Shown: piece by piece, positions 1,095 to 35,364 of the stretch
Layout of the letters: the number at the start of each line of letters is the position of its first letter
Position numbering within the stretch: position 1 is the first letter of the stretch
NCBI GenBank assembly: GCA_021234155.1
Contig: JAJEKV010000027.1
Span: forward strand, 3,966,623 to 4,030,622
Direction: 5' to 3'
Length of the DNA stretch: 64,000 bases
Source of the DNA: Isoetes taiwanensis
Taxonomy: Eukaryota; Streptophyta; Lycopodiopsida; Isoetales; Isoetaceae
Translations under genes and position numbers: made by a program
The notes under the pieces: model-generated
What the model saw: only the letters and a program-made list of their open reading frames with translations
The model's database searches: none
What the model was told of the DNA's origin: nothing

Positions 1095-2352
1095 ATGGAC
1101 ATGGCAGCAGCTTTGGAGCTTAATCCACTTCTATGGAGTGGCATTTGTGAGGATCTTCTACTCTTCCAAATACTTCCTCGCCTACCTGTGATTTATCGCC
1201 TTACTCTCAGAACTGTCTGCAAGTTTTGGAACAAACTTATCGTTTCTCAATTGTATTGGGAGCGCTGCGAATCCATATCTTCCACACCCTCTTTCCTCCT
1301 CAGAGTTATTATCGATAAGCAAACCAATCTGGCGCAGTTATATCACTATACAGCAAACTCTTGGCAGAACATTTCCACCCTTTTAATCCTCTACAAAATC
1401 TCTCATTCATATACACATGTATGTTCTGAGCATGGTTTGGTTTGCTTCGTGAAGGTGGCGCCTGGTTTCTTATCTTTAGCACTATGCAATCCGGTGTTGA
1501 ATGAATGGACAGATATGCCCTTATTGCTCGTCTCATATAAGACGGAAAGTCTGACTTCTATTATCTACAGAATTATCGCCAGAGAAGATGGATCTTTTTT
1601 CCTGCTAGTAGGGGACCACTCGATGATTTATCTGCTTGATACAAGAACGGATTCATGGGAGGATATTTTTGATTCCGAGGCCTTCTTCGGTTATGATGAT
1701 GATAACCCAGGTTTTAAGGATATGGTGGCTGTAGGAAATTCTATCTTTATTCTGATAGAAGCGAGTGATGATTACTTATGCTGTTATGTTTTTGCGTGAA
1801 ACGTGGACCCTGCTCGTAAGGTATGATTTGTTAGAGAAAGAAGTTTTTTTTTGTCCTGATCTAAACGAGAAACTTACCCCCCATGTCATGTCCATATTTG
1901 GGTTAAATGGGAAGCTGGTGATGGTGGGAAAAAGACGTGATTCTTCTCATGTTTGCTTTTGGAAGTTGGATGCAGAGTGGAGCCTCATTTTCATTCTCAC
2001 AGATCTTTCTCACATCTTTGCTGATAATCGGTTTGGATCTTATGTCACATTTGTTGAGGATCACAATCGACTTTACTATTCTGGCCGTCTTTCACGGACT
2101 CATGAATGTGTGGCAATTAATACCTCCAGTTTGATTGCAGATCAGAGATCATACCATTTTCTCATCAGCCTAGCCCTTCGAGCCAATTTTCTTTTCTATT
2201 TGCCTTTAAGCCCACAATCAAAAGACTTCTTTGAATGGATCTGGCACAATCTTTGCTTCTGTGCCAATTTTGCAGATGATTGTGCAGTGAAAAACATTGT
2301 TCATAATTCAGTTGACTCTAGGGCTTGGATAGATAAATATTGCAGCTCTTAA
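1095..2352 (+). pseudogene. F-box/kelch-like protein gene with a single frame break
   Basis: The first frame opens with a short leader and an F-box-like segment at about residues 15-60 (ILPRLP, then CKFWNKLI and LYWERC), as in plant F-box proteins that act as substrate receptors of SCF ubiquitin ligases. The rest looks like a C-terminal beta-propeller region (repeated blocks such as LLDTRTDSWED and LNGKLVMVGKR). The first frame stops at 1799, and matching coding continues in the +1 frame from about 1765 to the TAA at 2352. The two frames join if one base is removed from the T5 run at 1789-1793, giving about 418 codons, a normal size for the family. The single homopolymer lesion means this is either a young pseudogene or a sequence error. 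The target of the F-box protein cannot be inferred. Confidence 0.65.
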
Positions 2353-4187
2353 GGCAAGATTTCACTTTCTTAGATAGTTTTCTGTGCAACAAAGGTTTTT
2401 TTTCTAAAATTTGGATTGGCTGAATCTGTTCTTTACAACATTGAAGAAGTGTTGTAGTTATGCATGCAAATCAATTCATCTTTTGAGAAGTATCATGTCC
2501 TTCATGCCTCCTTTTAGGTTAATAATCTCATTTTCATTTTCCAAACTGTTCTTTAGCATGTTTGCCTCAGCATCTCAGAGAATGTAGTTTTTGGTCTATG
2601 ATGTTCATTCCATTTAAAATTGCTGTGTGTTCGGATAGGTTAATTTTGCTATATTTGGAAGGCATCTTGCTTTATAATTTCAATTAAAAAGACATTCACG
2701 ACATGTAGCTGTCCTGTAACATGTTTAAAAAATAATTTATTATCTTCAAACTTTTCCTACCCTTGACATTATTAGCAAAGATCTCTTTGTCTAGCTTTGT
2801 CGACATTCTTTTTTCATAATGATCTTAGCTGTTTTCAGCTGGAAAAATATGAACACAACTTTGTACTAATTGGCAGGTGAAGTTTCAATTAATCCAAAGC
2901 AAAATTCAGAACAACGGTACTTTGAGGACTTGTGTTTGTTACATGTTTCAGACTCAGAAAACAATTGTGGTGGAAAGATTGCAACTGATGGACTCATATC
3001 ATCTGAGTTTCGAAGTACTATTACAACAGTGATAAAAAATGCTAGTAAGATGCAGAACATGTATCAAAGTTAAAGAAGATTGAGAAAGACAGTAAGATAA
3101 AATAAAAGGAAATGCAGCAGTCCAATGGAGTTAAAGCATTGATTCTGCAGTTATGCAAGAGAGGCTATAATGCAAGAGTAGCATGCAAGAGAAATCAAAG
3201 GTAATTAGCAAAAAGCAACTGGGTATCAGTTGAGAAGAGGAAGCATGATGCAAATCTTGCATCAGGCTTCAACGAAGACAAGCAAATTATGTGTGGAAAA
3301 CCAAAGGCAATTAGAGAACTCTAAAGTTATAGGACTCTGCAAGTCTCTCGAGGAAGGAGAAAATAAACGGCATTTCAGTTTCTAGTTCTTTTGTCTTCAC
3401 CTTTTACGGATTGGATTAAAAAGCTACTAAGGGAAATGACGATTGCTCACACAAGATAGTGGAATTCTTTATTAAAAGAGAGACCGGGTACAACAAGAGT
3501 TAGGGAGAAGTTCAACCGCCCAACCATGGAACCAGCACTCCTACCGCCCAACCATGGAACTAGTACTCCTGATCACAAGCACTTTTGATCACAGAAATAT
3601 CCCACTAGAAGTCCCCAGGACTCTGCCGCTAGTTCCTTCCTTGAACTAAGATGGACTCTGCCGCTAGTCTCACACTTTTCAGAGTTGCCCAGCATTCAGT
3701 CAGATCCGGGCCAGATATGCTCCCTTAGTACGGCCGGACTTGCCCCTACATTTGCTGATGAACACGCCGTCAGTACGTGCTCTGGGGTCATACATTCAGG
3801 AGGTACTGGATCTCCGAGCTCACCTTTGCCCCCGCCTAGCTGCCCGCTCAACGAAGGTTCTGGGAACAGCTGATTCTTTAAAATGGCGGGCTGTTACGAA
3901 TACATTCTAAAAGTTAGTCATAGTGCACCATCAAATATAGAATTAGCTACTCTATTACTGGTTATCTATGATTGGCATAGATTAAGGGATAAGATGATGC
4001 TAATCTTAGTTTGGTGTATTACAGAGCCAAAGCCAATAATGGACTATTGGGCAAGAATAGATCCTTGAGGGTTTAAAAGGACATGCCTTGGAGAACAAGG
4101 GCATCATTGGTAGCCTTCCGAACATTGGCTCTGAGAGATTGCATCTTAGTTCAAGGAAGGAAGGAAGAAAGGTATTTTTATCGTCCA
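2353..4187. other. Intergenic; one possible small exon
   Basis: AT-rich spacer. An open stretch at about 2877-3073 follows a good acceptor-like sequence (ttggcag) and encodes an acidic peptide of about 65 residues ending in TAA. It could be a 3' exon but resembles nothing I recognise. Short imperfect duplications lie at 3517-3575 (ccgcccaaccatggaac twice) and about 3610-3675 (ggactctgccgctagt twice). No other gene is visible. Confidence 0.35.
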
Positions 4188-4308
4188 CGGAGACCAATCG
4201 ATCTATGGGACCCAATACAAAAGCGCAACAAGCGGATTACTACCCGGATTAAAAAACCCCTGCCCCGAGGGGTTTTCGAGGGAAAAATCGTGGCAGCAAT
4301 CAGCCTGC
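4188..4308 (+). repeat. Dispersed ~120-bp repeat, copy 1
   Basis: Starts with GTCCACGGAGACCAAT and includes GGATTAAAAAACCCCTGCC followed by GGTTTTCGAGGGAAAAA. It matches 6398-6517 in the same orientation, and its hairpin-like core recurs in reverse at about 10290-10345. It has no coding capacity. It is probably a non-autonomous mobile element or part of a larger family. Confidence 0.65.
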
Positions 4309-4309
4309 T

Positions 4310-5070
4310 GACAAACTATTCCAATATACAAAATGCAAAAACACACAAATATATACACTCATGCACCGCACCCGTGCGCAGGTAAACTTTCCTGTAAGCT
4401 TCCAAGAAAGGTAAATAATGCTCAAAATAATCCTCTGTTTTCCATTCTGCTTCGGTATGTGGCATCTCCTTATACTTCATCAAATATTTGCGATTAGTAC
4501 CACGACCCTTATGCCTCATAATCATCTCAGGTTGATACAGTGGATTATCATCCACTATACGTGCGGTACCAGCTGTGGGTTAACTTCTTTAAATGGCCTA
4601 AGACATTCCACATTAAAAGAATTATGCTTCTTCCAAGTATCCGGCAATTCCAACCTAAACATTATCATTTATCTTTTCAGTGATCCTAAAAGGTCCATAA
4701 AATCTAGTAACAAGCTTGTGCCTTTTTCTGTTCGGAAGATGCACGTCTTTGCTTAATGATTCTAATGACTACCCAATCATCCACCTGATATAGAACCTGT
4801 CTGCATTTCTTGTTCACTTGACGAGTGTACCTTTCATGAGCAACACTTTCAAAACATCATGAGCTTTTAATGTCTTTCTTCAAGGAATAAAGCTTGCATA
4901 CTTACTCAGACGATCCACAATAGTTCAAACCTGATCATTACGTTGTCTTCTCCATGGAACACGAACAAAGTCCATACTGATATGTTGAAAAGGTTTTTCT
5001 GAAATACTTAGTGCCATCAATAATCCTGGTACCTTGGCATAGGAGTCTTTGATTTCCTGACACATAAAAG
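4310..5070 (-). pseudogene. Ty3/gypsy retrotransposon remnant (integrase C-terminus and chromodomain)
   Basis: On the reverse strand, conceptual translation from about 5010 down gives integrase-like text (HISMDFVRVPW, then TIVDRLSKYASFIP), a later KLVTRFYGPF motif typical of the Ty3/gypsy integrase C-terminus, and at 4380-4555 a chromodomain-like tail (RKYLMKYKEMPHTEAEWKTE). Several stops and frame changes interrupt it, so it is a dead fragment. Protease, reverse transcriptase and LTRs were not found, so only the 3' end of pol survives. Confidence 0.7.
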
Positions 5071-18770: not shown

Positions 18771-19152
18771 GTTCATCTCCATGCAAGATAACTCGTTCTG
18801 CTGGAGGATATTTGAGTTCTTCAATATAAAAAATAATATAATAAATATAAATATGGTTATTAGACTATATGATTGTTATTTAATGATGACGTTGCTGACA
18901 TCTACACTACACATAAAGCACGATTTCATTAATTGGAGAAAATAAGCCAATTTTGAGAATTTTAAGCACACCTAATTTGCTCTAGCACGAATACTTTCAC
19001 CTACTTCTCGAGCACAAGAAACATGAGGCAATTAACATACACATATACATACAAATTATGTGTTATACTTGTACGTGTACATGACACTCGTAGAAGCTCA
19101 ATAATGGCCCTACATTGTACACCAATAATTCACATCAATAATTTTACTTCAC
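18771..19152. other. Spacer upstream of small-ORF cluster
   Basis: AT-rich; no coding signal. The last ~70 bp contain the upstream word CAATAATTCAC shared by all three small-gene promoters. Confidence 0.45.
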
Positions 19153-19159
19153 TATAAAA
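19153..19159 (+). promoter_or_regulatory. TATA box of small-ORF copy 1
   Basis: TATAAAA preceded by cttcac, exactly 43 bases before the ATG at 19196. The same geometry occurs at copies 2 and 3. Confidence 0.7.
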
Positions 19160-19195
19160 ACGACTTGACTCGGGGGCAGAGGTCATTCATCTTCC

Positions 19196-19429
19196 ATGGC
19201 TTCCTCGATGCCTCGTCCAGAGCACATCCGCTCTTTCAAGTGTTACTTGAGCTACAACGATCTGGGCGAATGCGCTAGAAATGGCGTTAATCTTGATCCA
19301 TGGCTCCTATCTAAAGCTGATGGACCTGCTAGTGCTTTCACTCGTGTTGTGGTGCACATTTACTGGCTTCCTGATCAGGAGATCTATGAGATGAATAGCA
19401 TCACGAGCTTTGGTGTTGATGATGAGTGA
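19196..19429 (+). CDS. Small tandem-family protein, copy 1 (77 aa, unknown)
   Basis: ATG to TGA in a single exon. I do not recognise the family. Comparison with copy 3 shows a conserved skeleton: HI...KC..S..DL..C, then LDP.L..KA, a hydrophobic RV...I.WLP, YE, and an acidic DE C-terminus. No signal peptide or membrane helix is evident, so it is probably a small soluble protein. The start is supported by the TATA box 43 bases upstream and by alignment of the three starts. Divergence from copies 2 and 3, with the conserved skeleton kept, suggests a real coding gene rather than a repeat. Confidence 0.6.
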   Translation: MASSMPRPEHIRSFKCYLSYNDLGECARNGVNLDPWLLSKADGPASAFTRVVVHIYWLPDQEIYEMNSITSFGVDDE

Positions 19430-19746
19430 ATCTGCACATGCTAATAATGTAATAATGACATGGGTACCTAATAACTAAGTAAGGATGTAATAGCATTCTA
19501 AGTAAGGATGTAATATCATGTACCTTAACTGAGTATATTGTAACGATGTGCTATCCCACCTCCACTTTTTCTGCAAGCTGTCATTGAATTCAATCATAGT
19601 TAAATTCGTCAAGCAAACATGTTTTCAAACATACGCATATTAATATGAAATATGTATTATTCTTGTATGTATACAACAGTCTGATACACGCTCAATAATG
19701 GTGGTAAAGTCTACCCCAATAATTCACCTCAATCATTCCACTTCAC

Positions 19747-19753
19747 TATAAAA
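19747..19753 (+). promoter_or_regulatory. TATA box of small-ORF copy 2
   Basis: TATAAAA after cttcac, 43 bases before ATG 19790, with a conserved CCCCAATAATTCACCTCAAT block upstream. Confidence 0.65.
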
Positions 19754-19789
19754 GCTTCTCACGCCGGGGCTAAATTTCATTCATCTCCC

Positions 19790-20034
19790 ATGGATTTTTC
19801 GCCTTCTTCAGTTTACCACATTGAGGCGATCAAGTGCTCAATGAGCCACTCTGATCTTGTTGGTTGCCTAGACAGGCATCTTCTTCTTGATCCCTACCTG
19901 CGAAGAAAAGCTTTGGGCGAGATTCACGTTGCCACCTAGCGTCAATTCGTGTTATGATCCATCTGATTTGGCTTCCTGAGCGCATGAGCTATGAGATATC
20001 AGGGATCACTACTACAGATCCTGAAGATGAATGA
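19790..20034 (+). pseudogene. Small tandem-family copy 2, frame-broken
   Basis: Nearly identical to copy 3 for the first 43 codons. Small indels around 19918-19938 then shift the frame into a TAG at 19937-19939. Homology in the original frame resumes and runs to the TGA at 20032-20034 (ending in the same PEDE-like tail codons). The promoter and 5' leader are intact. It is a recently inactivated duplicate, or it encodes a ~49-aa truncated peptide. Confidence 0.7.
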
Positions 20035-20229
20035 ATCACATGTTTGGCATTGTATAGCGTAAGAGCTCTTGTGTTGAGATGAAAAATGCAGAGCGTAATT
20101 AATAATAACTAGTCTATTGTAACTTGCATGAAAGATGTATTACACTTGTATGTATACAACAGTCTTATGCACGCGCAATAATGGCGCTAAAGTCTACCCC
20201 AATAATTCAGCTCAATGATTCTACTTCAC

Positions 20230-20236
20230 TATAAAA
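20230..20236 (+). promoter_or_regulatory. TATA box of small-ORF copy 3
   Basis: TATAAAA after cttcac, 43 bases before ATG 20273; flanks are near-identical to copy 2. Confidence 0.7.
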
Positions 20237-20272
20237 GCTTCTCACTTCGAGCCTAAAGTTCATTCATCTCCC

Positions 20273-20515
20273 ATGGATTTTTCGCCTTCATCAGTTCACC
20301 ACATCGAGGCGATCAAGTGCTCAATGAGCCACTCTGATCTTGTGGGTTGCCTAGACAGGCATCTTCTTCTTGATCCCTACCTGCGAAGAAAAGCTTTGGG
20401 CGCTGAGATTCGTTGCCCTGCGTCAATTCGTGTTATGATCGATCTGATTTGGCTTCCTGAGCGAATGAGCTATGAGATAACAGGGATCACTACTACAGAT
20501 CCTGAAGATGAATGA
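20273..20515 (+). CDS. Small tandem-family protein, copy 3 (80 aa, unknown)
   Basis: ATG to TGA in a single exon. It shares the skeleton of copy 1 (HIEAIKCSMSHSDL, LDPYLRRKALG, RVMIDLIWLPE, YEITGIT, acidic C-terminus). No family recognised. The 483-bp spacing to copy 2, with promoter and 3' flank included, marks a recent tandem duplication of the whole transcription unit. With a TATA box 43 bases upstream, the 5' leader should be only about 10-15 nt. It converges with the decayed DUF7869 gene, whose 3' end is 140 bases away. Confidence 0.6.
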   Translation: MDFSPSSVHHIEAIKCSMSHSDLVGCLDRHLLLDPYLRRKALGAEIRCPASIRVMIDLIWLPERMSYEITGITTTDPEDE

Positions 20516-20653
20516 ATCACCTGTTTAGCATTGTATAGTGTAAGAGCTCTTGTGTTGAGATGAAAAACGCAGAGCGTAATGAATAATAACTAGTCTATTG
20601 TAACTTGCATGTTATGTATGATATAGTAATTATGTAAAAGAGCATTGCGTACC

Positions 20654-22735
20654 TCAAGAGTTCTCATCATCGTCGTTAGCTTCTTTAGCCACTAATTCTT
20701 GTAACTGAGCCCCCACACTACTGGGGATCACCACTGACAACGGCCTGGTCTCTACGGCCCAATCATAGTCTATTGTTTTCAAATGTTGGTAGCGTGGCGG
20801 GTCATTAGGATTGGGTCTCCAATTCTTGCTCCAAAATCCCTATCTTGCATTGCATATGAGGTTCCCTTTAAACAATGTGGCTCAAACCAAGAGACAAACA
20901 CCTCTTCAAATGTGGGAGATTAGGGTCCTCTATTGGGTCCTCTTCGCAAAAAGCCATTCACGCGTCGGGCGGTTATCATGTGGTCCGATTAGCAAGAGCA
21001 TTCCTTTCTTGACATCTTGGTAGGGGTCGAATATTTCAACCGGGTTCTTGGGTCTACCCGAAAGGCCCAACGTAATGAGATGCTTCAATGTGCTCATCCA
21101 CAAACACTTTTTCGGGTTCTTCCAATGCACTTTGCACAGTCTTTGGGCGAGAAATCATGAATGATGACTCTACCGGGCTGCGTCCCCAAGCACTTTCGCG
21201 GCAAGGTGGACCAAGAGTCAATAACTTCATTCATATATGTGTTGGACCATGAGTTATCGCCAGCTCTAGAAATAGCTGCCCAGTGCATCATGTACTTGGC
21301 AATAGAAGCTCTCAATGCACCTATATCTTTCAAGCTCCCATATGGCTGCACGACCTTAGGTGACCCTCTCGGAATCATAGGTAAACCTTGGGCATCCTCC
21401 TTCCACATTCTGATTCCCTTCTCAGGGAGCCACTCCCTATGCCCTGGCCTCATCTTGTAGAACATTAGTGGCCATCCATCCTTCATGCAAAACTTGAAGA
21501 GTAGAGGTTCCAAGTGACCACATAAACGGTCCTTCTTATCAGGGATAAAACCTTTCACGAATTCCTTCCAATTAGGAACCTCTGACACAAGGTAAGGTGA
21601 AGGAGCCTTTGAACTACAATTTTTCTTTGAAGAGTTGCATAAGCTCTGGAATAGTCAATGCATCTGATCTTCTCATTAGATTAGAGTAGTTTCCAAAGAG
21701 GGCATCTATGTCATCGTGAGTGTGTCCAACCATCATGAATCCCAGCTGCACTTGATCAAATACACCTAACCAAACCAAGTATGACAAGTAAGAGAAAAGA
21801 TATCTATTCTTATTCTGACCTGAGCAATTATCTAGCTGCAAGTAAAGTCTCCTAGGCAACTTGTTCGGTACCATGGGGCCTTTGATAGGAGGCATAAAAT
21901 CATTTCTACTGCCATTTATCATTTTTGTCCTAAGGGTATCTGTGTTTAAAATTGCTGCACCCCAGCTGCTTTCAGGACGATCTGTATCTCTCAAATGGCC
22001 CCAATTATCCTCAGATTTATTCTCCAGTGTCTTCAAGGTATGATTCAAGGATCCCACATGAAAATTAGAATCATCAGGCCAGAGGTCCAGTGAGAAGTGG
22101 CCCAAGGCACCTATACCATGGCCGTGCATGAGAGCACCTGTGACACTGACCTTCAGTCGTTCACCCCTCCATACAGACTTCGCTAGCTTCTCTAGACGAG
22201 GGAATATGGTCTTATTCTGATCCATCTTATCATGTATAATGGTTAAAGCGTGCTCAGGAGATCTATGAGACAAAGCTCTCCAGGATCAGTAAAGGCTCCT
22301 GCATGAAATCTGGGCCGTCATATGCGATTTTCTCTCTACTGCAAGTACCCTTCTTTCATTTGGATCTCTGGTCTTAGCAAGCTTTTCCTTTATGAAAATA
22401 CAGGTGTTACACTTAGAAAATGCTATCCTCTTAGCTATTGCTACCTCTGAATGATTCTCTTTCCAAGCAGACAGAAAGGACGAAGGAGAGATATGCTTGC
22501 CTGCCATCTCTGTAACGGTAATATCTACTTCTTGGTGTATATCCTTCTTAGTCAAGACTGAAGGTAGCCTCTTAACATTTTGTCTGCTACCCTCGCTCGT
22601 AATTTTCGAGCGGTGTGGCATGAAACACGTGAACATTGTATAATAAACACACCAGAGTGCACAGGTTTGCTTAGAACATCTAGTTTTACATATTCTAATC
22701 CAAAGTATCAGCAGGTATCTTATCAATCCATACAA
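20654..22735 (-). pseudogene. DUF7869-family transposase-like gene, decayed
   Basis: Reverse strand. The middle part (21614-22273) carries the family's RNase H-like core: LQLDNCSGQNKNR, then LGVFDQVQLGFMMVGHTHDDIDALF, with a conserved D, N and the HTHDDID motif. Upstream (22286 to about 22600) is the Cys-containing, helical N-terminal part (FSKCNTCIFIKEKL). Downstream frames continue (VPNWKEFVKGFI; WPLMFYKMR), ending at a TGA at 20654-20656 after a DDDENS tail. An in-frame TGA at 22286-22288 and frame changes near 21600, 21110 and about 20930 break it. DUF7869 proteins are found in many eukaryotes in multicopy, mobile-element-like loci. I did not find terminal inverted repeats. Confidence 0.75.
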
Positions 22736-23500
22736 TACATAGTGATGTTAGTGTAGAATCAATTGAATGTCGAGAACCCTATAAGGAAACAGTTTTTAAG
22801 GACGATTTAGTTATTATTGATCATGAACTAACAGCAGAGACTCGGAGGTTGTAGTTATCATTGAAATTCACTGCAACATCAACTTTGAGTTCACTTCACT
22901 GAGAGATATGCATCAGAATAGGCCTTTTACCTCGCCCGAAACCCTAAATTCGATGCAATGGAAGAAATCCAAATGTATAGTGGCGCAGTGCAAGCGGATT
23001 ATCAGCGCCCTCGTCAGCGCCTTCAATGGATGCGCCTTCTGCAGCAAATCCTTCAGAGAACTTGGCACAGCTCACGCGCAGCTCGAGCGTCTCCAAGATC
23101 TTCCAAAACAATCAAATTTGAATTAGCTTTTCCCGCTTTCACTTGAAATGTTTGTTATCGAATTCAAATTTTACTGTCACTGTCCATCCGTAATCCAGTT
23201 TCTTTTTGTAGCCTTTATGGCTGCATAATGTGTCAGGTCCATTTAATGAATTGACAGTACGGGAGGAAATTGAACGCGGACGTCCAAGTCGATGAACACC
23301 TTTTGTACGGATTACTTGCTTTTTCGGACGGGTATATTCGCACGAACGCATTTATGGCCAGTAATAAATACGGACAGCCAGCCGGTAATTAATACTTCCG
23401 GCGTGTAATTAATGCGCCCGCACGTACGGCGCCATTATGGCTGGCACGAAATTTCACGTACCATTATGCCCGGCGGGCAATTAAAGTCCGCGGCCGCGCT
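22736..23500. other. Spacer and probable promoter region
   Basis: No gene recognised. From about 23300 the base composition becomes more GC-rich, with repeated ggtaattaat/gtgtaattaat words and cggcgcc/cggcggg patches, leading to the TATA box at 23505. Confidence 0.4.
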
Positions 23501-23504
23501 CCTC

Positions 23505-23510
23505 TATAAA
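23505..23510 (+). promoter_or_regulatory. TATA box upstream of the ParB/methyltransferase-like gene
   Basis: TATAAA in cctctataaattc, 110 bases before the proposed ATG at 23615, in a GC-rich local context. Confidence 0.45.
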
Positions 23511-23614
23511 TTCAAAATCATCAATCTCTAAATATCTTTCAGGTTTTCGGCGACCGCGATTTCTTCAGCGCCTAGCGCCTTCGAGTTTGCAGCGCCTTCC
23601 GAAACCTCCCCAAA

Positions 23615-26600
23615 ATGACAGGAATTTCGTACACAGCCGGCGCCCGCGATCCCATGGCACCTAAGGACTCCCTCAGAGAAGGTAATTTCTAACATTTCAG
23701 CTCAGCAAGATCGCGGCCGCGATCTTGCCTACTAGATTTTGCAAGGTTTTGATTACTATAGCTGCTCAGCAAGATCGCGGCCGCGGTCTTGCTGAGCACA
23801 GGTCTTCTTTCTTGCCTTGCATTGCTACCATCCCAACAACGCGACCGCGATGTTCATGAGTAGTAGTATAGTAGCTCACTAGGATCGCGACCGCGATGTT
23901 CATGAGCAGTGGTATTGTTTTCTTGCCCTGCTTAGCTGCTACACAACATCGCGGCCGCGATATTGTGGAGTGCTATTTTAGTTGCTTGGAAGGATCGCGG
24001 TCGCGTTTCTCTTGAGTAGTTTATACTTTTCGTTGCACAACATTATGCAGCCTATCAGGCACTCACCACAGGCTTTTGTTTACAGCACTTGCTCTGTTTC
24101 GTGGACCGGATGTCGAACCCATCCGTATTATAACCCCTTCTAATGAAAGGAAATGGTGCATAGAGATTGCACAAGCAATACCGCACATTAAAGGTGACCG
24201 AAAAGGACACGTGCTGTTCTGGCGATTTGAAAGAAACCCGAGGGGCGTTGAACAAGTTGGCATAGTGGTGGCAATGTGGGAAGGCACGAAGAATAATGTG
24301 CAAGATGCTATCATATGCGAGATCGAGGACACACACGCATTGCGCCTTGAGTACATTCTCAAATGGCGCAATTATGATCCGTCTTTTGATGACAATCGAG
24401 AAAATGAACAAGCCAGCCACAGGGAAAAATGTCCCAACATCAGCTAATGGTTATGGCTGGGTGTTGCCATCCTATGAATCTCTCTCTTTGTCAGGAATAA
24501 AGGGAAACAGAGACATCTTGGTAGGGTTCTCGGTCTGCAAAAATGGTTTGTCCACAGACAAGAAGCCTCCGAGTTGTGCTTTGAAAGCAGTTCGGGACGA
24601 GAAAATGCCCTCTGTGATGGACACCAATTGGCTAAGGGCCGTGGCCAAGAAAAAAAGTGTAAAGCCAATTGCTGTTTTGGGAGAGCCTTCAGCATCAAAA
24701 ACAGTTGTTGAAGAACCACTATCCACGATAAATCCCTCCGGTATTATTAACCCTACTATTCCTCTTGCTTTAAAGGCCCCAGATAGTACTACATCTGGTG
24801 GATTTATTCCAAAAAAAATTACTCCTTTCAAAATTAACCTTAGAATGCTGAACAATGACGATAGTCCGCAGCCCAGCAGTTCTCAAACCCCTCCTTCTGT
24901 TACGGAAGCCTCCTCTAGACTAGCATTGCCATGGCCACACGCATCTGCCATTCCAGTGGAGTTAAAGTTCAATCCGGAAGAGGAAAGAAAGATGGCAGAG
25001 CAAACCACTCAAAAGCTGGAACAGTTTAAACGGTTTTACCCCTTAGGGGTGAATTGGTTTACCAAGATTTCTATTTTTGATTGTGAACCTGCACCGGCAA
25101 ACCTGACACACCGAATGCGATCAAATGACCATGTTCAAACTCTGGTCAAAAGCTTCAAGACATACCCAACAGAGGTCCTCACACCTGCTGACGTCGTGCC
25201 ATTTGACCCTATTACCAGGTAACTGATTCTCTATCTTTTGAACACTCGTTTAGATTTGACTTGATGGTTGTCTATTTTTTAGGAGGAGGGTGACGTGGAG
25301 CAATCCAGAGGATTTAAAGGGCAAGAGATTTTACATTATTTCTGGCAACCACAGTATTTGCGCGGCACAACTCCTTTGTTCGGTCGTCGGCAACCGGGAG
25401 CATCAACTAGAATTTGCTAAAGTATATGCTAGAAGAAGATCGAGAGTGCTGAATGGAAATCTCACTGACAAGGAATATATAGAGTTGAGTATTCAATGCA
25501 ACGAAGTAATTGCAAACACCGTCTACAGAGAGCCACTGATTGAAAAACTGCAACAACTTCGTCATCAGCACAAGGCTTATGGCTGTCCTCCACAAGGACC
25601 GATAGGAACGGCTACGACTTCTGCTTGGAAGGTATTTATTCACTTTCTTCTCGCCAACGTCGCGACCGCGATCTTAATGACCTTTGCTTCTGCAGGATTT
25701 TCATGAAATTGCAACGACCACATTGAAAGTGCAGGAACTTAAAGATGAAAAACAATTCATCTTTATGGATGAGAAGGTTTTCAAGAAGCTAATGGAAGTT
25801 GCCGGACTGTGGGTGAACCGTAATCTCAGCGACGACCATGGTGAGTTTCTGGACAAACCATCGAAAGAGTTCTTTAACAAGACCTGGCTCCGGTTGCTAC
25901 GAGGTATGTCGAATGCAGAGGTGTCACAGCTGCTCGATGAGATTATAGAAGGCAAGACGTATTTGAAGGTGCAGTCAGGGTATAGCGGGAGATTTCATTG
26001 CAAACAACGGGCAACTGACATCAGAACCCTCACTTTTATGAGGCACGAAATTTTATCTTATGCCACAAATTTGCTGCAAAAGGATTTCGATAGCTGGGAG
26101 GAATTGCTTCAGGCTTTTCCTGATTTGACTGAACAGAGAATACTGGATATATCAGATACCGATACAGAGTACGTGAAGGCTAACTATAACAAGGATCATA
26201 CACTAGGTAACCTACCTGTAGCTTTTCTGGAGCCAATCAGAAATATTCTAAAGCCAGAAGAGGCTAGAAAAAGAAAGGAAAAGAAAAATGTTGTCATAGC
26301 AGTGACAAAGGATGGCATCCCTACTTCCTCCCAAGTGTCAGAAAATGCGACATTGATATTTATTGACATCCGAGGGATCAACAAGGTATGGGATTGCAAG
26401 AAATACACAGACCTATTTACAAGGATAGCTACCATGACGACTGCCAAAGTTTATCACTTGGTTATTATCATGCGCTCTGTGAATTTGCCCAATTGCTTGT
26501 ACAAATGTGGCAAATTCGTATGGCCACCTATCTTTAGGTTCTTATGAAGAAATGGGATGGGAGAGCAAACGAAGGGGTGAAAGAACATCAGTACTATATT

Positions 26601-27439
26601 AGTCATATGTGCATTAACAGGAGTGATGTTCGTAGCACCTGCAACCAGAGCTGGAGCTTAATCCTATCTCCACACAGCAAGGCTCCTAAGTCAACACCAT
26701 TGCCTCTAATGCCGCTAACAGGTAATGAGGATGCCGATGAGAAGATAAAAAAGAAATTTCAGACTCTCTTTACAGGCAAACCAAGATTCAAATGGGCGGC
26801 AATGGAAGGAGATCTTGTATTGAAATGCCAGCTGAAAACCTCGTATGCCTACCATATTGTTGAACAGCTGGTGCCCACGGACGGTTGCGTTCTGGATTTC
26901 TTTTCGGCTGGGACAGCTTCTCGTGTCGCTCTTATGCAAGGTAAAAAGAGCGTGGCCTTCGAAAGTTCAGGTAAAGTGTGCCGTTTCCTGAGGGCGTTCT
27001 TGGAAACGCTTGAGAAAATGGCCAGTCAAAGTACGAGGGGTCTGAAGAAGAGGAGAAAGCAGAGAATGCAGAGCCTGATCCTGCGCTGCCCAACATCAGT
27101 ATCACCCAAAACACAGATATATCAAGGTTGGATACCATTTTGGAAAACCTCGATGCTAAGTCCTACGAGGAGAGAATGCAAGAAACAAAGCGCTTGCTTG
27201 AAGCGACGGAAAAAGGTATAGAAGCCCTCGAGCCCACTTTTCAAAAATTAAGTGCACTTAATGAGAAGCTTGATGGGTACATGCCATTCTTGACAGGCGA
27301 ACATAAGTTTGAATACTTGGGGGTAGAGCACATGGAAGTAGACAAAGAGCACATTGAAACAGACCAACAGCACATGGAAACAGACCAAGATGAGGTTGTT
27401 GGGACACAAGAGCATCGTGTACACAAAGAAGAAGCGTAA
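23615..27439 (+). CDS. Multi-exon gene: ParB-like domain joined to a beta-class DNA-methyltransferase-like domain (possibly decayed)
   Basis: Proposed exons: 23615-23681; 24086-25218; 25283-25631; 25696-26478; 26538-27439. Four GT-AG introns keep phase (404, 64, 64 and 59 bp). The third segment has a ParB-like pattern: SFKTYPTEVLTPADVVPF, then FYIISGNHSICAA (GxHxxxAA) and AKVYARRR. A later stretch (ATLIFIDIRGINK, about 26350-26395) sits where the catalytic DPPY/DPPW of N4-cytosine/N6-adenine methyltransferases would be, but reads DIRG. Further on, VLDFFSAGTASRVAL followed by a GKKSVAFES strand resembles motif I of the beta class. The tail is acidic and helical (EEEEKAENAEPD; EVDKEHIETDQ). Reading frame changes near 24400-24450 and 27030 that I could not explain by splicing; they may be lesions or unrecognised introns. 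With motif IV altered, catalysis is doubtful; a DNA-binding role is possible. Family assignment is by motif only. Confidence 0.5.
23705..24007. repeat. Intronic array of six GC-rich palindromes
   Basis: Six copies of ATCGCGNNCGCGAT centre at 23716.5, 23780.5, 23844.5, 23890.5, 23954.5 and 24000.5. Centre-to-centre spacings are 64, 64, 46, 64 and 46 bp, so two palindromes form a 110-bp higher-order unit. The first is part of a perfect 24-bp palindrome (23705-23728). The second extends to 34 bp with one mismatched pair (23764-23797). The fifth has 26 bp with one mismatch. The spacers are alignable (tcatgagNagt; ttcttgccNtgc), so this is an old tandem array whose palindromic cores are better kept than the spacers. 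It lies wholly in intron 1 of the ParB/methyltransferase-like gene. Confidence 0.9.
25659..25672. promoter_or_regulatory. Isolated GC-rich palindrome in intron 3
   Basis: gtcgcgaccgcgat, one outer mismatch to ATCGCGNNCGCGAT, inside the 64-bp intron 25632-25695 of the same gene and outside the tandem array. Confidence 0.75.
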
Positions 27440-27801
27440 GCTCTTTCATCCACAGATTGCTACTCAATCCTGGAGAAGGAACTTATAGGCGGGAACAAAG
27501 CAAGGGGGGAGAGTGAAAAATGGGAGCCCGATTCACATGTGCAAAATAAGACGCAAACGCCATGGGTGTTGAGATTCCAGAGGTCACAGGTTATTCAGAG
27601 ATGGACACAACACAAGCTATGGAATTGGGTAGAGAGCATGTCATCCGCATGGCCAATGATATGGGTGTGATACGATAAGCGATCCGAAACACAATCACAA
27701 GAATGAATATTGTATATTACTTCCTTCAATGGAAATTTTGGTTTCGGGGAATATGAATTTTGTCTTTACTACTACTTCGTGCATGTTTAATGCTAAAAAT
27801 A
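27440..27801. other. 3' flank of ParB/methyltransferase-like gene
   Basis: No further open frame of note; probably 3' UTR and spacer before the two downstream palindromes. Confidence 0.35.
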
Positions 27802-27815
27802 ATCGCGACCGCGAT
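27802..27815. promoter_or_regulatory. GC-rich palindrome, 3' flank copy 1
   Basis: atcgcgaccgcgat, an exact match to ATCGCGNNCGCGAT within AT-rich sequence. Confidence 0.8.
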
Positions 27816-27951
27816 CCTCTGTGGCAAATACATGGCTTTAAATACTGAAATTTTTGTGATATGCTTGCTCCACTATACCTTCTTTTAACGCAATGCTCTC
27901 ATATGGTTTTAATAAAAGGCTCATTAATTTGTCTCCTTTCAGCTGCGAAAG

Positions 27952-27965
27952 ATCGCGTTCGCGAT
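27952..27965. promoter_or_regulatory. GC-rich palindrome, 3' flank copy 2
   Basis: atcgcgttcgcgat, an exact match to the consensus with TT at the centre, 150 bp after the previous copy, in AT-rich DNA. Confidence 0.8.
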
Positions 27966-30900
27966 TCTTGCGATAAGATTGAGCATTCCCTCCTACTACA
28001 GTCTGCTCACGATGGACCTTTGCATGAGCTGTAAAAATTATATTTCCGAACAACACTGAATCATTTGCAGAATTTGTGCAAAAAAACGCCAACTTTTACT
28101 CAGTTGGTAGCAGTTTCTGCACTATATGGCTAACCACTAACCTATTTCATGCTAAACGAGAATTCCAAATTTCTCTAATTAATTAATCCATGCTTCATAA
28201 TGCTATATAAAATACACAAACACACTAATGCAATTAGTACACTATGATAGTTGAGTAAATAAAATATCCAATTATGCCTAATGAGGCATTCAAAATTTAG
28301 CAAAGCCTAAGTTTATAGTAAAGTGGGAAACATGGAAAATCTGTACTTGTGATCTTTGTTGAAGGTACATATTTGATAGCAAAGATTTTATTAGCGCTAC
28401 GATGTAATAAAACATCTTATTGGGTATTCGACTAGTCTCCGTAATACTTCAGCAAGCCAAATCTTATTCCCAAGCAGAACTCAATGCTTTATCTAGTGAA
28501 CTAAGTGCCTTTCACATGTTTCAAAGGCAAATCTTTCTGGAATACTTTAATGTCTTTGAAGATCTGTCTACTATAAGTCATACATATAAATCTTCCTGTT
28601 TCTTAACTACACCTACTTTTTTCTATGTCCACATTTGTAGGGGTCAGCTTTGTGTAGTTTTGGAATATTATTTCGTAGCATCACAAACTATTATACAATT
28701 TCAAGAATTGCGAAATTACTTCTCGAAGTTCAAGTGTAACATGTGGAAATGAACGTGAGATATCCTCTATTACCAATGTACTAATTGCAGGCATCTCATG
28801 AGATAATGTATTAAATAACATCTTATGGAAATCTATATGTAATTTGAACGTTTTCACCCTTTTGTATCGAGATAATTATATCAAATTACTCTTCCTTATA
28901 AACATCTTCTTTATATTCATAGCCATCCATTACTATTACATGCAAAGCCAAATATTTCGTCGAAAAATATTTCTATTTAGTAACTCAGTCCATTAAATTT
29001 AAACGAGTCAGAAAAGAGAAATCTTCACGGCAAAATGAGAACATCTCTAAGAGAAATGTTCTTATAGAGTGCCCAAGATCTGTAAATTATGAACTGCTCC
29101 TACATGATGTTAAGGCAATTCATATATATTCATTCTAACTAACATAACCGGATCTGGAACGTTGAACAATCCCACCAAAAATAAGTCTAAGGAAAATTTA
29201 TTCGTACAATACACAATTCATTTTGCACAGACCTTAAATAACAAGGGACTTGTATATATATATATATATTTTTTTTTATAATAATCCATTCAATTATTTT
29301 AGGGGTATGGTTTATGGTCTTAGGAATTGTGATTTATGCATCCATATTAAATCCCCCTTGAACTTCTTGTTGTTGTACAACATATTAAAAGGCTTGAATT
29401 TCCCCTTGTAATTGGGCCATCATAATTTTTAGATAATTCTATATACGTTGCTTCTATTAGGCATCAGTACAACTCATTTTGATTAAGTACATGCACATCC
29501 TTCTTGCATTATAACTACTAGTTTGTGCAAGGTTATGCATATGACAAACCCATCATTAATATGCATGCAAGAGCTTTAATGCAATGGAATTTATGCAAGA
29601 GCTTTGACACCATGGAATTATGTTTATGTTTGCTCATAGTATATAATACTATCACGAGTTAGGACTAGACACAAAGATAAGCACAACATTTATTGCTTAA
29701 TTAACGTTTGTGGGAATAAAGCTACTAGCTTTGGTATGTCTATGCAGAACAATTTGCCCTTCAATTCAAAATGAAGAAATTTGCAACACAAAGTCATAAG
29801 CATCAAATCCAAACTGAGATTGCTACATAAGCAAGATGTGCCACTTAGTCATGTCCCATTGATCTATGTTTCCGGGAATGATAATGTGCATGGGGAAAGG
29901 AACATGAGATAATATGTGCCAAATAAAAAACCGTATATTTATAACTTATGATTTGTTAAGGTTATTCTTGTTATTTGTATTGGAATACTGTAGTTGCTGA
30001 TAGTGGCACTGCGGATTCGAAACAGGAGAACCTAGGGTTTGATTTTGTTCATTTTCGTGGGAGGAATGGGCGATGCGTCACATGGCGATGCTGCACATGG
30101 CTTTCGATTCTGGACTGTGTAGGTGTCGGATGAAGACGATGGTGGGTTCGAGGCTTCAAAGAAAATGGCTATGGCAGATTTTGGGCCACCGAAAATGAGG
30201 CCAAGAGGGCGCACTTGCCCTAAGCTAGCCTCTGCAGGGCCGTAGTACAAGGTAGAGTTCTTGAGCCGATATTGAATGCAGAGGATGCAGCCGATGCCGG
30301 TTGTCTGTAGGGGGCTTGCATCTAAGGCCAACGGAGTCCAAATATCGCTGATTCTATGCAAGAAGCAGGCAACGATTTTTCTTCAAGTTGGATATGCAGT
30401 TCTGACCACTCTTTTCAACAGGCCAGCAACATGCTCTCTTTCGTTTGTCTGCCCAATTTGCCAGGTCTTCTTTGAATTGTTCCAAACTTGTGTCTGGGAT
30501 TCTTGCATCATGCCAAAGTTGTTCGGCCTATTTTCATGGCTTCTGCAGTGGCGGATTTTGCTGTGCAGTGCCGTTGTGCCACTTTTTGTTGGCTGGCTTT
30601 ATTCTTGCTTCTTAACCCAAGCCGATTGGCACATGGTCACTTTTTTGTTGCGTCGAATATGAATAAGGCAGTTTATATGTTCTGTCCGTCTACACTATAT
30701 GCTTATTCAGGGTTCTACAGGGTTGCTGCTGGTATACTCAGGCTCTCAGGGATATCAGAGGCATGCCTGAGCGAGTACTCTAGATAAGTGGAGAGCATCG
30801 AATTCCAGTTGACAGGTAAGTGGAGAGCATTGGATTCTAGTTGTGTTTCGATCCCCCAAACTCGCTTAAGTGTTGTCGTGTATGTGAAGTGTATGTTTGA

Positions 30901-32046: not shown

Positions 32047-35000
32047 TTACAGATTGTAGAATATGTCCTCTAGTGCATCCTCTGAAAGAAATGCACTAGA
32101 CCCCTCTAACTCATCCTCTTGTATCTCTTGAATGTTAAGTTTCCTCAACATTATGTCCCTATGATCCAAAATTTTAACAATATAGTCACCGATTGTGCTA
32201 CCTGGCATATCAAAGAAAGCTATCAAGTTACCACAAACAATATTATATGTATCTCTGATGCTTTTGTATTGCGGGCACTGTAAAAGCACGCATTTCATCC
32301 TCAACCACTCCCATCTTGCATAGCTTGCAGAGTCTCAACTCATGGGGGATATTGCTCCAACGCCCAACTTCAACGCCAAGATGATGTGAGCTAAGTCTTA
32401 TTCTGCCAATTGTATGCCTTAACTTTAATGACACTCCTTCTCTCAAATATCTTGGAACTTGAAGCTGTGGACTGATATTCTGCCTGTAATATTCCTTCTT
32501 GACTTCTGGTACTCTCCATGATTTCTCCATAACATGTTCCATTACCCACTCCCTAATATCCGCATGATGTTCGGCCAATCTAGATGCATCTAAATCCCAC
32601 TTTCTCATCCAGTTTTGTATATCGGCATACCACCCTTTACATTTCGTGGCCTCCAAGGCTAATCGTGGTAAACTTGATACTGGCATTTCCTGTACCTTGC
32701 ATACATACTTAAGCGTTCTGCACAGGGCTTCTGATTGCAATGATGACATCCCACACTCGGCCAATAGCATGTCATATGGTGTCTGTGACTTAACACCGAG
32801 TTCTGTTCTGAGAAACTTCTTCTGTACCTTTTCTATTTTCCTCCAAGTCTCCTCAGCCAATCCTGGAGCCCATACCTCACAGCCATACAACAATACTGTT
32901 TGCACTAGAACCCCATATAACTGCTTTTTCAATTGGAAGTTCCATATCTCATTTTTTCTACTGCTGCGCTGCATACTATATAATGCTTTCAGTCCACCAT
33001 TTATCCTCTGCTCTACAGCATAGTTCCAACTCGGGCTTTTATCAACCTGTATCCCTAGATATTTATATGAATCCACCAGTTCTACCGGTTCCCCTTTGTA
33101 AACAAGGTGTATGTGATCCACTTTGTTTGCCCCAAACACAATTATTTTAGTCTTTCCCATGTTCACTTTCATACTCTTGTGGTCACAAAAATCAGCCAAC
33201 CCATCTAAATGTTTCTGTATTCCAGCAATTGACCTTGACAAAAGCACTACATCATCCGCATATAAAAGTAAAAACACCACAAACCTCTCTAGGGCCATAC
33301 CATCCCCTCCGTTCTGCATCATCCACTCTTCTAGTTGGTCTATGAACAACCCAAAAAGAGTGGGAGACATGGGACACTCTTGCTTTACACCTACGTTGCT
33401 TACTACTGGTTCCTGGCTTTCTCTAAAATAAGGAAAAGATAGCTGCACAAGTACCTTCTCGTATAGTATTTTGACTGCTTGCTTTAGCTCGTTTGGCACC
33501 CCCAATCTTTCCATACGTTCCCATAAATTGTCTCTGTCCACCATGTCGAAAGCTTTTGTAAAATCCACAAATAACATATAAAGTGGTTTCCTTGTTCCTG
33601 TAACTGTATCCATCATCGCTCTCAAAGTAACCAAGTGATCTGTAGTGGACCGTTTGGGTCTAAAACCCGCTTGTCCTATAGCCCGTACACCCATTTCTTC
33701 TGCCCATCCACTTAGTTTGCTATTAACCATAGTCGCAAAAAGCTTAGCATATAGGCTACTGATCATAATCATCCTATAGTTGCCAGGATCTGATTTGTCA
33801 CCCGCTTTATGCAAGGGAACAACCCTGTTTATTTGCCATTCCGTGGGAAGCCTTCTCTCAGCACCATATTCATTAATTTCAGCAATATTTTGTGTACCTC
33901 CTCTCCTGCCCACTTAAACATCTCCGCAACCAGCCCCAAGTTATCTGCAGCTTTCCCATTTGCTAATGTTTCTAACCCCCCCTGTATATCTTCCATGGTG
34001 AATTCCCATTCTACATTGAAATCTGCCAGAGCAGTGTCCTTTATACCTGGTACATTGTATATTTTTTTAACTTGGCTGAATAGTGGTTCTACCTCAAGCA
34101 ACTCACCCTGTTCCATTCTTGGCTTAAGCCTTGCCCAAAATTTCTTAGGCTCTACCAGCAAATCTCCAATCATTCGCATGTGTTTTTGGTATAAAAACCT
34201 TTTCTTTTTCGCTTTCACTAGTGACATATATTCCCTCTTAGCCATGATTTTCTCCTCCCCCCTTGCATGTTTAAATTTTTGTCGTTTTGCTTTGCATTCC
34301 CCATCAAACCAACTGTTGCACGGGAGCCCTTTTAACCTGCGTTGGGAGACGAAACATTTCCTTGCTGCCTCTATTACCAATTCGCTAAGGCTCACAGTAA
34401 GCTCTTCCACCTTTTCAGGCCAATCCTTGCACATGGCACAGGATTCACATAAGGAGTTGTATTCCTCCGCTTTGTTATACTGCATGTATATCTTTTTATT
34501 AGGGTTGTCCACCACTTTTCTTGCGATCTCTTGGCGTTTAATATGCATGGTAACAAAGAGAGGTACATGATCTGATTCCGTCCTTTCTTCACCAACATCT
34601 ACATCTGAAATAGTTCTCATTAATCTCGGGCTAGCTATCACTAAATCCACCACACTAGCACCTCTGCAAGTGGGCTTACCAGAGTTCTTGTATTTTTGGA
34701 GACCATTATAGATGACCATATCGAGTCCTGTACACATATTTAGCACATGATTTCCTTGTGGTGTGGGCCACCTAATTCTATCTGCTGACTCTCTATGCCA
34801 CCCTAGTTCCTTCATCTCATTTCCATCATTCATTTCCATCTATAAAGGATCTCCTTTGATACTAGTCATTGCTGCTTGCTTCTGTGCTACCCTGCCATTA
34901 AAGTCACCCATTAGGATCACTTCTCCCTGTTGCATTAACTTTAGAACATCTTGTTCTAGGTCAAAAAAGGGATCATCCCTATCTATTTGCCCCCAGTTAT

Positions 35001-35343
35001 AAACTGGTGATTCACGAGGCGGGTAGTAACACCCTGCTATGTATATTTTATTCAGTGGACCCGATATCTCAATCCATATATATTGCAAAGATTTTATGCC
35101 ATGTACTAACTGTATCATCCCTCGCAGCTCATGTTTTATGTAACAAGCAATCCCACCGAATCCCTTAAGCCTCCAGTGCTTATGATGCCATACTGAATGA
35201 AGACACATAAAACCTGGAATGTCTAATATCCCTTTTTCCTCATTTTCACAAGTTTCTAACAGAAAGAAAACATCTACTTGTTCAACAATATCACTCATAG
35301 TTGCTACTTTAGTTGAGTTCAGGCTGTTTATGTTCCAACACAT
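32047..35343 (-). pseudogene. LINE ORF2: endonuclease-reverse transcriptase, broken
   Basis: Starts MCWNINSL (35343). Endonuclease motifs are all present: WNINSL, LLETC, GGIACYI, GCYYPP, LMGDFNGR and ESDHVPL. An in-frame TAG at 34840-34842 interrupts this domain. A frame change near 33845 precedes the reverse transcriptase: INRVVPLHKAGDKSDPGNYR, QAGFRPKRSTTDHL, FVDFTKAFDMVDR, an altered VKQECPMSP (normally QGCPLSP), LLLYADDVVLLS and YLGIQVD. The YADD catalytic box is intact. After another frame change near 32290 comes the C-terminal knuckle region (CKLCKMG, then LLQCPQY) and the stop at 32047. The product would have copied RNA at nicked target sites; as it stands no full-length protein can be made. 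Confidence 0.85.
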
Positions 35344-35364
35344 AACCCTGATGGTCCCTAATTC

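What the first reader, a model, noticed from the sequence alone, without database searches (positions are those of the whole stretch)
23505..27965. ParB-like/DNA-methyltransferase-like gene surrounded by nine copies of its own kind of palindrome
A plant gene with short introns appears to encode a ParB-like segment followed by a beta-class DNA-methyltransferase-like segment. ATCGCGNNCGCGAT palindromes lie in intron 1 (six), intron 3 (one) and the 3' flank (two), and by eye nowhere else in the 64 kb. Bacterial ParB proteins bind a 16-bp palindrome (parS) near their own genes, so a self-recognising protein plus site system is a natural hypothesis. Sequence shows the palindromes and motifs; the binding relationship is inference.
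Basis: partly seen in the sequence, partly recalled or inferred. Interest (0 to 1): 0.88.

Follow-up and report, generated by a model that had tools for sequence, protein, structure and literature searches.

The report
Transposon carrying its own palindrome sites
The odd plant gene and its nine matching DNA palindromes belong to a jumping gene found in many copies, and the palindromes tend to stay unchanged while the DNA around them drifts, which suggests that a protein made by the jumping gene recognises them, perhaps to escape silencing by the plant.

Summary
Nine palindromes (5 exact, 4 with one mismatch) lie at the stated places. They and the gene are part of a two-gene DNA transposon at window 18916-28195, with sharp ends shared by other copies, imperfect terminal inverted repeats and a 4-bp target duplication, CATA. 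A divergently placed DUF7869 gene lies in its left half. Genome-wide the palindrome occurs 2244 times, the reversed control 9. Of 100 listed ATCGCGACCGCGAT sites, 59 lie within 4 kb of a coding signature or protein match of the family. Of 8 divergent copies, 8 keep sites in intron 1, 7 in intron 3, 6 upstream and 6 in the 3' flank (at most 2 mismatches), although intron 1 hardly aligns otherwise. The site is a longer dyad. The protein is under purifying selection. Its methyltransferase relation is weak, the catalytic motif being D-x-R, never DPPY (0 of 43); ParB relation is unsupported by profiles. Best reading: a transposon protein acting on clustered sites in its own noncoding DNA, as VANC does. 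Binding and anti-silencing are inferred.

The parts
18916..28195 (.). Whole element (this copy, with an internal deletion): two-gene DNA transposon
   Evidence: Left end sharp: the 39 other copies scored begin at query 58-68, i.e. window 18907-18917. Right end sharp: 38 of 39 others stop at query 236-245, i.e. window 28195-28204; one runs to 263.
18916..18945 (+). Left terminal inverted repeat, AAGCACGATTTCATTAATTGGAGAAAATAA
   Evidence: 22 of 30 positions match the reverse complement of the right end
28166..28195 (-). Right terminal inverted repeat
   Evidence: right ends of the form CTCTAATTAAT..CATGCTT are seen in 5 of 8 divergent copies, and in 2 more BLAST reaches the same end
18912..18915 (.). 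Target-site duplication, left copy (CATA)
   Evidence: a second copy (reverse complement of L043) has AATA on both sides
28196..28199 (.). Target-site duplication, right copy (CATA)
21097..22621 (-). Gene 1: DUF7869 protein, presumed transposase (5' part deleted in this copy)
   Evidence: PF25273 E 2.9e-39 in the ORF 21617-22285; copies E and G continue past 22621 where the window copy is deleted
22621..22622 (.). Internal deletion junction: about 1.6 kb present here in copies E and H (reverse complement of L042, 873-2510)
23654..27439 (+). Gene 2: putative ParB-like/MTase-like protein. Exons about 23654-23681, 24086-25218, 25283-25631, 25696-27439 (start and end inferred); reading frame broken in this copy
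   Evidence: long open exon 4 in other copies, e.g. 672 aa in L018
25335..25367 (+). ParB-box-like segment ISGNHSICAA
   Evidence: GNH in 32 of 38 copies aligned there; lines up with the ParB box without significance
26353..26376 (+). Motif-IV position of a beta-class MTase, reading LIFIDIRG, not DPPY
   Evidence: D-x-R in 43 of 43 copies, PP in 0 of 43
26886..26966 (+). SAM-binding motif-I-like segment VLDFFSAGTASRVALMQGKKSVAFES
   Evidence: hhalign of the family against phage beta-class MTases, E 2e-4, probability 45%
23710..23723 (.). Palindrome 1, intron 1, exact
23774..23787 (.). Palindrome 2, intron 1, 1 mismatch
23838..23851 (.). Palindrome 3, intron 1, 1 mismatch
23884..23897 (.). Palindrome 4, intron 1, exact
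23948..23961 (.). Palindrome 5, intron 1, exact
23994..24007 (.). Palindrome 6, intron 1, 1 mismatch
25659..25672 (.). Palindrome 7, intron 3, 1 mismatch
   Evidence: conserved in the family's intron 3
27802..27815 (.). Palindrome 8, 3' flank, exact
27952..27965 (.). Palindrome 9, 3' flank, exact

Best explanation
This is one copy of a two-gene DNA transposon family. Gene 1 (DUF7869, minus strand) is presumed to move the element. Gene 2 (plus strand) encodes a protein with a SAM-binding-like stretch but without the catalytic motif of an amino-methyltransferase. I propose that the gene-2 protein binds, as a dimer, the dyad A-N-N-ATCGCG-RY-CGCGAT-N-N-T. The dyad is arrayed in intron 1, stands in intron 3 and the 3' flank of gene 2 and, in fuller copies, in the region between the two genes. 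By loading on these sites in its own noncoding DNA the protein would keep both promoters open against host silencing and tune their expression, as VANC proteins do in VANDAL elements. Shown: element, ends, copy number, conservation of the sites and their linkage to the family, purifying selection on the protein. Inferred: which protein binds, dimer binding, anti-silencing.
For: Element: both ends sharp, TIR and 4-bp TSD in two copies. Sites: 2244 against 9 control. Linkage: 20 of 34 exon-2 signatures and 30 of 66 exon-3 signatures have an ATCGCGACCGCGAT site within 4 kb (expected 0.15 and 0.29), and 59 of 100 such sites lie within 4 kb of a signature or protein match. Two palindrome loci taken only because they held palindromes (C1, C2) are both intron 1 beside family exon 2. 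Conservation: 28 of 30 protein-selected loci carry a site with at most 1 mismatch. Of 8 divergent copies, 8 have sites in intron 1, 7 in intron 3, 6 upstream, 6 in the 3' flank and 2 in intron 2 at up to 2 mismatches; at up to 1 mismatch the figures are 8, 6, 6, 3 and 2. In intron 3 of 16 copies the 12 fixed columns average 0.95 against 0.735 for flanks, and between subfamilies 0.83 against 0.51 (21 pairs). Intron 1 otherwise gave no match over 60 bp, and the best 12 rows of a more sensitive run are short matches at the sites. Dyad: the outer A and T, not used in the selection, stand in 1320 of 2244 exact sites genome-wide, where base composition would give about 8%. Tandem spacings of 34 and 63 bp. 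Protein: dN 0.15 against dS 1.8, omega 0.08, for L048/L049; dS saturated in 45 of 55 pairs with dN 0.2-0.45. VANC precedent: motifs in introns and upstream regions, in tandem repeats (passages of PMC5735166).
Against: No binding, expression or methylation data. No DNA-binding domain was identified by profile. The window copy has a broken frame, and 2 of 30 loci show no site in the piece fetched (L025, L034). 41 of 100 sites are not near a signature; 14 of 34 and 36 of 66 signatures have no site of that sub-pattern within 4 kb. The 3' flank sites are less well kept (3 of 8 at 1 mismatch). Some pairs of recent copies show omega near 0.5, as expected if single copies decay. CpG outside the sites is not strongly depleted (o/e 0.63-0.87), so CpG loss by methylation gives no support.
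Confidence: 0.5

Rival explanations
1. The palindromes are sites of the DUF7869 protein (gene 1), used for assembling the transposition complex or for repressing its own gene, and gene 2 is a passenger with another task.
For: DUF7869 is a very large family in this genome (150 scored of 9902 candidates) and part of the element. Sites lie between the two genes in copies E, G, H and B, in E and G just before a candidate start codon on the gene-1 strand, and 230-400 bp from the right end.
Against: In the window copy no site with at most 2 mismatches lies in 18916-23709, i.e. the left end and what is left of gene 1, so the sites do not bracket both ends. They are densest inside gene 2.
Confidence: 0.2
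2. A host transcription factor binds the CpG-rich palindrome; the transposon collected host sites as promoter or enhancer elements, and gene 2 is unrelated to them.
For: The sites sit near both promoters and in the first intron, where plant enhancers often lie (general knowledge). 41 of 100 sites are not near a family signature.
Against: 59 of 100 sites lie within 4 kb of this one family and the two palindrome loci taken blindly were both in it.
Confidence: 0.15
3. The palindromes act as RNA hairpins in the transcript (splicing control or small-RNA precursors).
For: The sites are self-complementary and neighbours pair with one another (29-nt arms); a sub-threshold miRNA-model hit covers two of them (28.4 bits against a gathering score of 100).
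Against: The same dyad stands alone in a 64-bp intron and in the 3' flank; several variants are changed on one side only (ATCGCCATCGCGAT, TTCGCCGCCGCGAT), which favours a protein-read motif over pairing. Compensatory changes were not formally counted.
Confidence: 0.07
4. One reading: a ParB/parS-like partition or spreading system captured from bacteria or phages.
For: Gene-plus-palindrome arrangement; ISGNHSICAA lines up with the ParB box. A ParB-superfamily protein, VirB, is a CTP-binding anti-silencer (abstract of PMC10653881), so a ParB origin and the best explanation are compatible.
Against: No profile support; no relative confirmed in IMG/VR among 488 stretches found with two peptide patterns; best phage hit E 5, in the MTase part only.
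Confidence: 0.08

Closest known systems
VANC/VANDAL anti-silencing system of Arabidopsis (Hosaka et al. 2017, PMC5735166; passages read)
   Same: Transposon-borne gene; a short motif arrayed as tandem repeats in introns and upstream regions of the same element and enriched there; motif persists together with the gene family.
   Different: VANC motifs are about nine bases, not palindromic, and differ between families; here one CpG-rich dyad is kept across deeply diverged subfamilies. No relation of the proteins was found by the libraries searched (no direct comparison was made), and anti-silencing is not tested.
Bdelloid rotifer N4CMT (PMC8885841; passages read)
   Same: N6_N4-MTase-type gene in a eukaryote, tied to transposons.
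   Different: N4CMT is an active enzyme with SPPY and a chromodomain and is linked to transposon silencing; here DPPY/SPPY is lost, the gene belongs to the transposon, and the chromodomain-like stretch scored E 0.13 in one reading and was not found in the four readings.
VirB of the ParB superfamily (PMC10653881; abstract and section list only)
   Same: Works by countering silencing, as proposed here; the TE protein has a segment resembling the ParB box.
   Different: Homology to ParB is not significant (VirB itself was not compared); host, targets and partner proteins all differ.
TnpA of En/Spm and subterminal repeats (recalled, from no call)
   Same: Element-encoded protein bound to repeated sites inside its own element.
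   Different: TnpA sites sit at both ends; here the left end of the window copy has none.

Membership tests
Class II DNA transposon | Sharp ends with terminal inverted repeats | tested here: met
   TIR 22 of 30 (window) and 23 of 30 (copy F)
Class II DNA transposon | Target-site duplication | tested here: met
   CATA/CATA in the window, AATA/AATA in copy F: 2 of the 2 copies for which I compared both flanks
Class II DNA transposon | DDE-type transposase fold in DUF7869 | not testable with these tools
   Structure prediction switched off; 0 papers in the library hold the name DUF7869
ParB / parABS | ParB_N domain by profile | tested here: not met
   No ParB_N hit at E <= 1 in window pieces or in 6 of 6 members; hhalign probability 0.6%
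ParB / parABS | Palindromic sites beside the gene | tested here: met
ParB / parABS | CTP binding and spreading | not testable with these tools
   Needs biochemistry
ParB / parABS | ParA partner | not tested
   No search for ParA was made in the element
Beta-class amino-MTase | (D/N/S)PP(Y/F/W) motif IV | tested here: not met
   PP in 0 of 43 copies; D-x-R in 43 of 43
Beta-class amino-MTase | SAM-binding motif I | tested here: inconclusive
   hhalign E 2e-4, probability 45%; Pfam N6_N4_Mtase E 0.083 and 0.027, below cut-off
VANC-like anti-silencing | Clustered motif in noncoding DNA of the same element, in tandem repeats | tested here: met
VANC-like anti-silencing | Protein binds the motif; loss of DNA methylation follows | not testable with these tools
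   Needs EMSA/ChIP and bisulfite data
Mutator/VANDAL superfamily | Mutator-type transposase and its longer target duplication (recalled) | tested here: not met
   DUF7869 found in the neighbouring gene instead; duplication of 4 bp

The most novel reading that the evidence does not exclude
A prokaryote-type ParB-plus-methyltransferase protein was captured by a plant transposon, lost its methylating motif, and became a reader that loads on parS-like, CpG-rich dyads in the transposon's own introns. It would be an anti-silencing system, possibly methylation-sensing, built from bacterial parts, in which one site has been kept while synonymous sites saturated.
Probability: 0.2. Interest if true: 0.9.

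Novelty: new variant of a known kind. Interest (0 to 1): 0.7.

Why it matters
How transposons escape silencing by their hosts is an open question, and I know (recalled) of few cases of an element-encoded protein acting on sites in the element itself. Here is a second arrangement of that shape in what is probably a lycophyte, with a different protein, hundreds of signature hits genome-wide and a well kept dyad, so the binding and anti-silencing hypotheses can be tested directly. It also shows intronic sites kept while synonymous positions of the same gene are saturated. None of the papers listed by the searches describes it by title or abstract start; that library is limited to open-licence papers.

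Tried and rejected
Rejected or weak. (1) CpG retention as evidence for selection: CpG o/e outside the sites is 0.63-0.87, not depleted enough. (2) Chromodomain: E 0.13 in the window reading, not found in the four N-terminal readings. (3) ParB homology. (4) A microRNA: sub-threshold. (5) Viral or phage origin: none of 488 pattern-matched IMG/VR stretches was confirmed; 2 phage records at E 5. (6) Phage ParB-MTase fusions as a bridge: PF02195 was sought in 9 phage records and found in 0; the three phage MTases scanned carried no ParB domain. (7) My first working claim that all 8 divergent copies hold sites at all four places was wrong; the recount is.

Rows dropped before counts: copies A, B, C and L006 and two overlapping palindrome loci, as duplicates; L046 and L028 from the intron-3 alignment, as partial, and other close relatives not chosen for it (16 used). 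One search used only the listed first places: 100 of 904 sites of one sub-pattern; 34 of 641 exon-2 signature hits (those listed on contigs up to C908, all exact); 66 of 429 exon-3 hits; and 11 protein places. Exon limits are approximate, set by hand from the BLAST pieces.
Full report
1. Observation. The palindromes are real and far beyond chance: 5 exact and 4 one-mismatch copies of ATCGCGNNCGCGAT, all inside or just behind the gene; one further match with 2 mismatches lies at 43512. The reading frame of this copy is apparently broken near 24.40, 26.54 and 27.0 kb. Some other copies have long open exon 4 frames, for example 672 aa in L018 and 671 aa in L009. The breaks may be decay or assembly errors.

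2. It is a transposon. The window's own genome is held (1,658,258,908 bases, 1110 contigs). A protein search gave 170 matches from only 109 scored of 5774 candidates. A DNA query across the right end showed 38 of 39 other copies stopping at window 28195-28204. A query across the left end showed the 39 others scored starting at 18907-18917. The ends form an imperfect inverted repeat (22 of 30) with CATA on both outer sides; copy F, an internally deleted 4078-bp relative, has 23 of 30 and AATA on both sides. By my reading of two listings, 7 of the 39 left ends have a gene-2 hit in the right orientation within about 10.4 kb.

3. Two genes. The left half holds a gene on the minus strand with PF25273/DUF7869 (E 2.9e-39). 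That family is huge here (150 scored of 9902 candidates; 0 of 14 control genomes) and is presumably the transposase; its fold could not be tested. The window copy has lost about 1.6 kb between them at 22621/22622.

4. Sites and gene go together. The palindrome occurs 2244 times genome-wide against 9 for the reversed pattern. Of the 50 sites listed first, 37 have another within 5 kb (0.014 expected per site). The coding signature of exon 2 occurs 641 times with at most 2 mismatches (control 0) and that of exon 3 429 times exactly (control 0). On the contigs covered by the listings, 20 of 34 exon-2 and 30 of 66 exon-3 signatures have an ATCGCGACCGCGAT site within 4 kb (expected 0.15 and 0.29). 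Of 100 such sites, 59 lie within 4 kb of a signature or a protein match and 41 do not. Two palindrome loci taken only for their palindromes both proved to be intron 1 beside family exon 2. Of 30 loci chosen by protein, 28 carry a site with at most one mismatch and 25 an exact one, within pieces of 3.8-4.2 kb.

5. The sites are kept while their surroundings drift. In eight divergent copies (L046-L053), counting sites with up to 2 mismatches, 8 of 8 have them in intron 1, 7 of 8 in intron 3, 6 of 8 upstream, 6 of 8 in the 3' flank and 2 of 8 also in intron 2. With at most 1 mismatch the 3' flank falls to 3 of 8 and intron 3 to 6 of 8. Intron 1 of the window gave no BLAST match over 60 bp to these copies; the best 12 rows of a more sensitive run are matches of 25-72 bp at the sites. 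In intron 3 of 16 chosen copies, the 12 fixed site columns average 0.95 against 0.735 for the flank; between subfamilies, 0.83 against 0.51 over 21 pairs. Meanwhile synonymous sites are saturated in 45 of 55 pairs of copies. The motif is wider than described: three bases outside the 14-mer stand A on one side and T on the other, in 87% and 83% of 78 sites found by a loose pattern, in 80 of 95 exact sites of fetched copies together, and in 1320 of 2244 exact sites genome-wide (base composition would give about 8%). This dyad symmetry suggests a dimer. The bases in between are less fixed. Spacings of 34 and 63 bp recur, as in tandemly grown arrays.

6. The protein. It is under purifying selection: L048/L049 dN 0.15, dS 1.8, omega 0.08. 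Ten of 55 pairs gave a finite omega, from 0.08 to 0.57; in the other 45 dS is saturated while dN is 0.2-0.45. The most conserved 24-base coding stretch of exon 4 is the position of MTase motif IV, but it reads D-x-R: 43 of 43 copies, with PP in none. A motif-I-like stretch aligns to phage beta-class MTases at hhalign E 2e-4, probability 45%. The likely state is a non-catalytic SAM-binding-like fold, which is inference. The ParB idea rests on ISGNHSICAA alone; the profile comparison picked that register but gave probability 0.6%, and no library search gave a ParB hit. I therefore do not call it ParB.

7. How it may work. In VANDAL21 of Arabidopsis, VANC protein binds a short motif that is arrayed in tandem repeats in introns of VANC21 and VANB21 and upstream of VANA21, and DNA methylation is lost (passages of PMC5735166). 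The present element has a similar layout: arrays in intron 1 and singles in intron 3 of gene 2, sites behind gene 2, and sites between the genes in fuller copies, in E and G just before a candidate start codon on the gene-1 strand. VirB, of the ParB superfamily, shows that a protein of that superfamily can be an anti-silencer (abstract of PMC10653881). I therefore propose self-targeted anti-silencing or autoregulation by the gene-2 protein. Binding, dimerisation and the effect on silencing are inferences.

8. Host. The assembly size matches the published Isoetes taiwanensis genome (1658.30 Mb; 204 scaffolds plus 909 contigs; passages of PMC8566536). The tools name no organism, so this is an inference; 1110 contigs are held here against 1113 sequences there. 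That assembly was made from Nanopore reads polished with Illumina, so small frame breaks in one copy deserve caution.

9. Novelty. The general kind (a transposon protein acting on arrayed sites in its own element) is known. The protein family, the CpG-rich dyad and its conservation were met in none of the listings. I file it as a new variant of a known kind, with the mechanism open.

Noticed in passing
window 18916-20611: The window copy looks like a mosaic: its left end is 96-99% identical to other elements, some of which carry gene-2 proteins only 64-77% identical (C908, C963, C1007, C1054, C919), but only 78% to copy F; a direct repeat of about 485 bp (92.6%) lies at 19645-20611 near the join.
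   Followed up: partly
L035+L036 (copy A): Two elements in direct repeat with a period of about 9.3 kb (92.6% identical over 4.7 kb), with an ORF resembling a LINE endonuclease in between (the LINE naming is by eye).
   Followed up: partly
L037+L038 (copy B), 1644-4786: A 3.1-kb insertion with 355-bp direct terminal repeats, 97% identical; looks like a short LTR element.
   Followed up: no
window 32246-35364 (-) and 31.7-41.1 kb: A LINE (RVT_1 E 1.7e-28, endonuclease E 1.2e-9) lies in a region with long (AG)n tracts.
   Followed up: no
whole genome: DUF7869 has nearly ten thousand first-look candidates here, of which 150 were scored; no paper in the library holds the name.
   Followed up: no
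window 57415-58074 (-): TIG and ankyrin domains in the order of a CAMTA-type transcription factor (the name is recalled).
   Followed up: no
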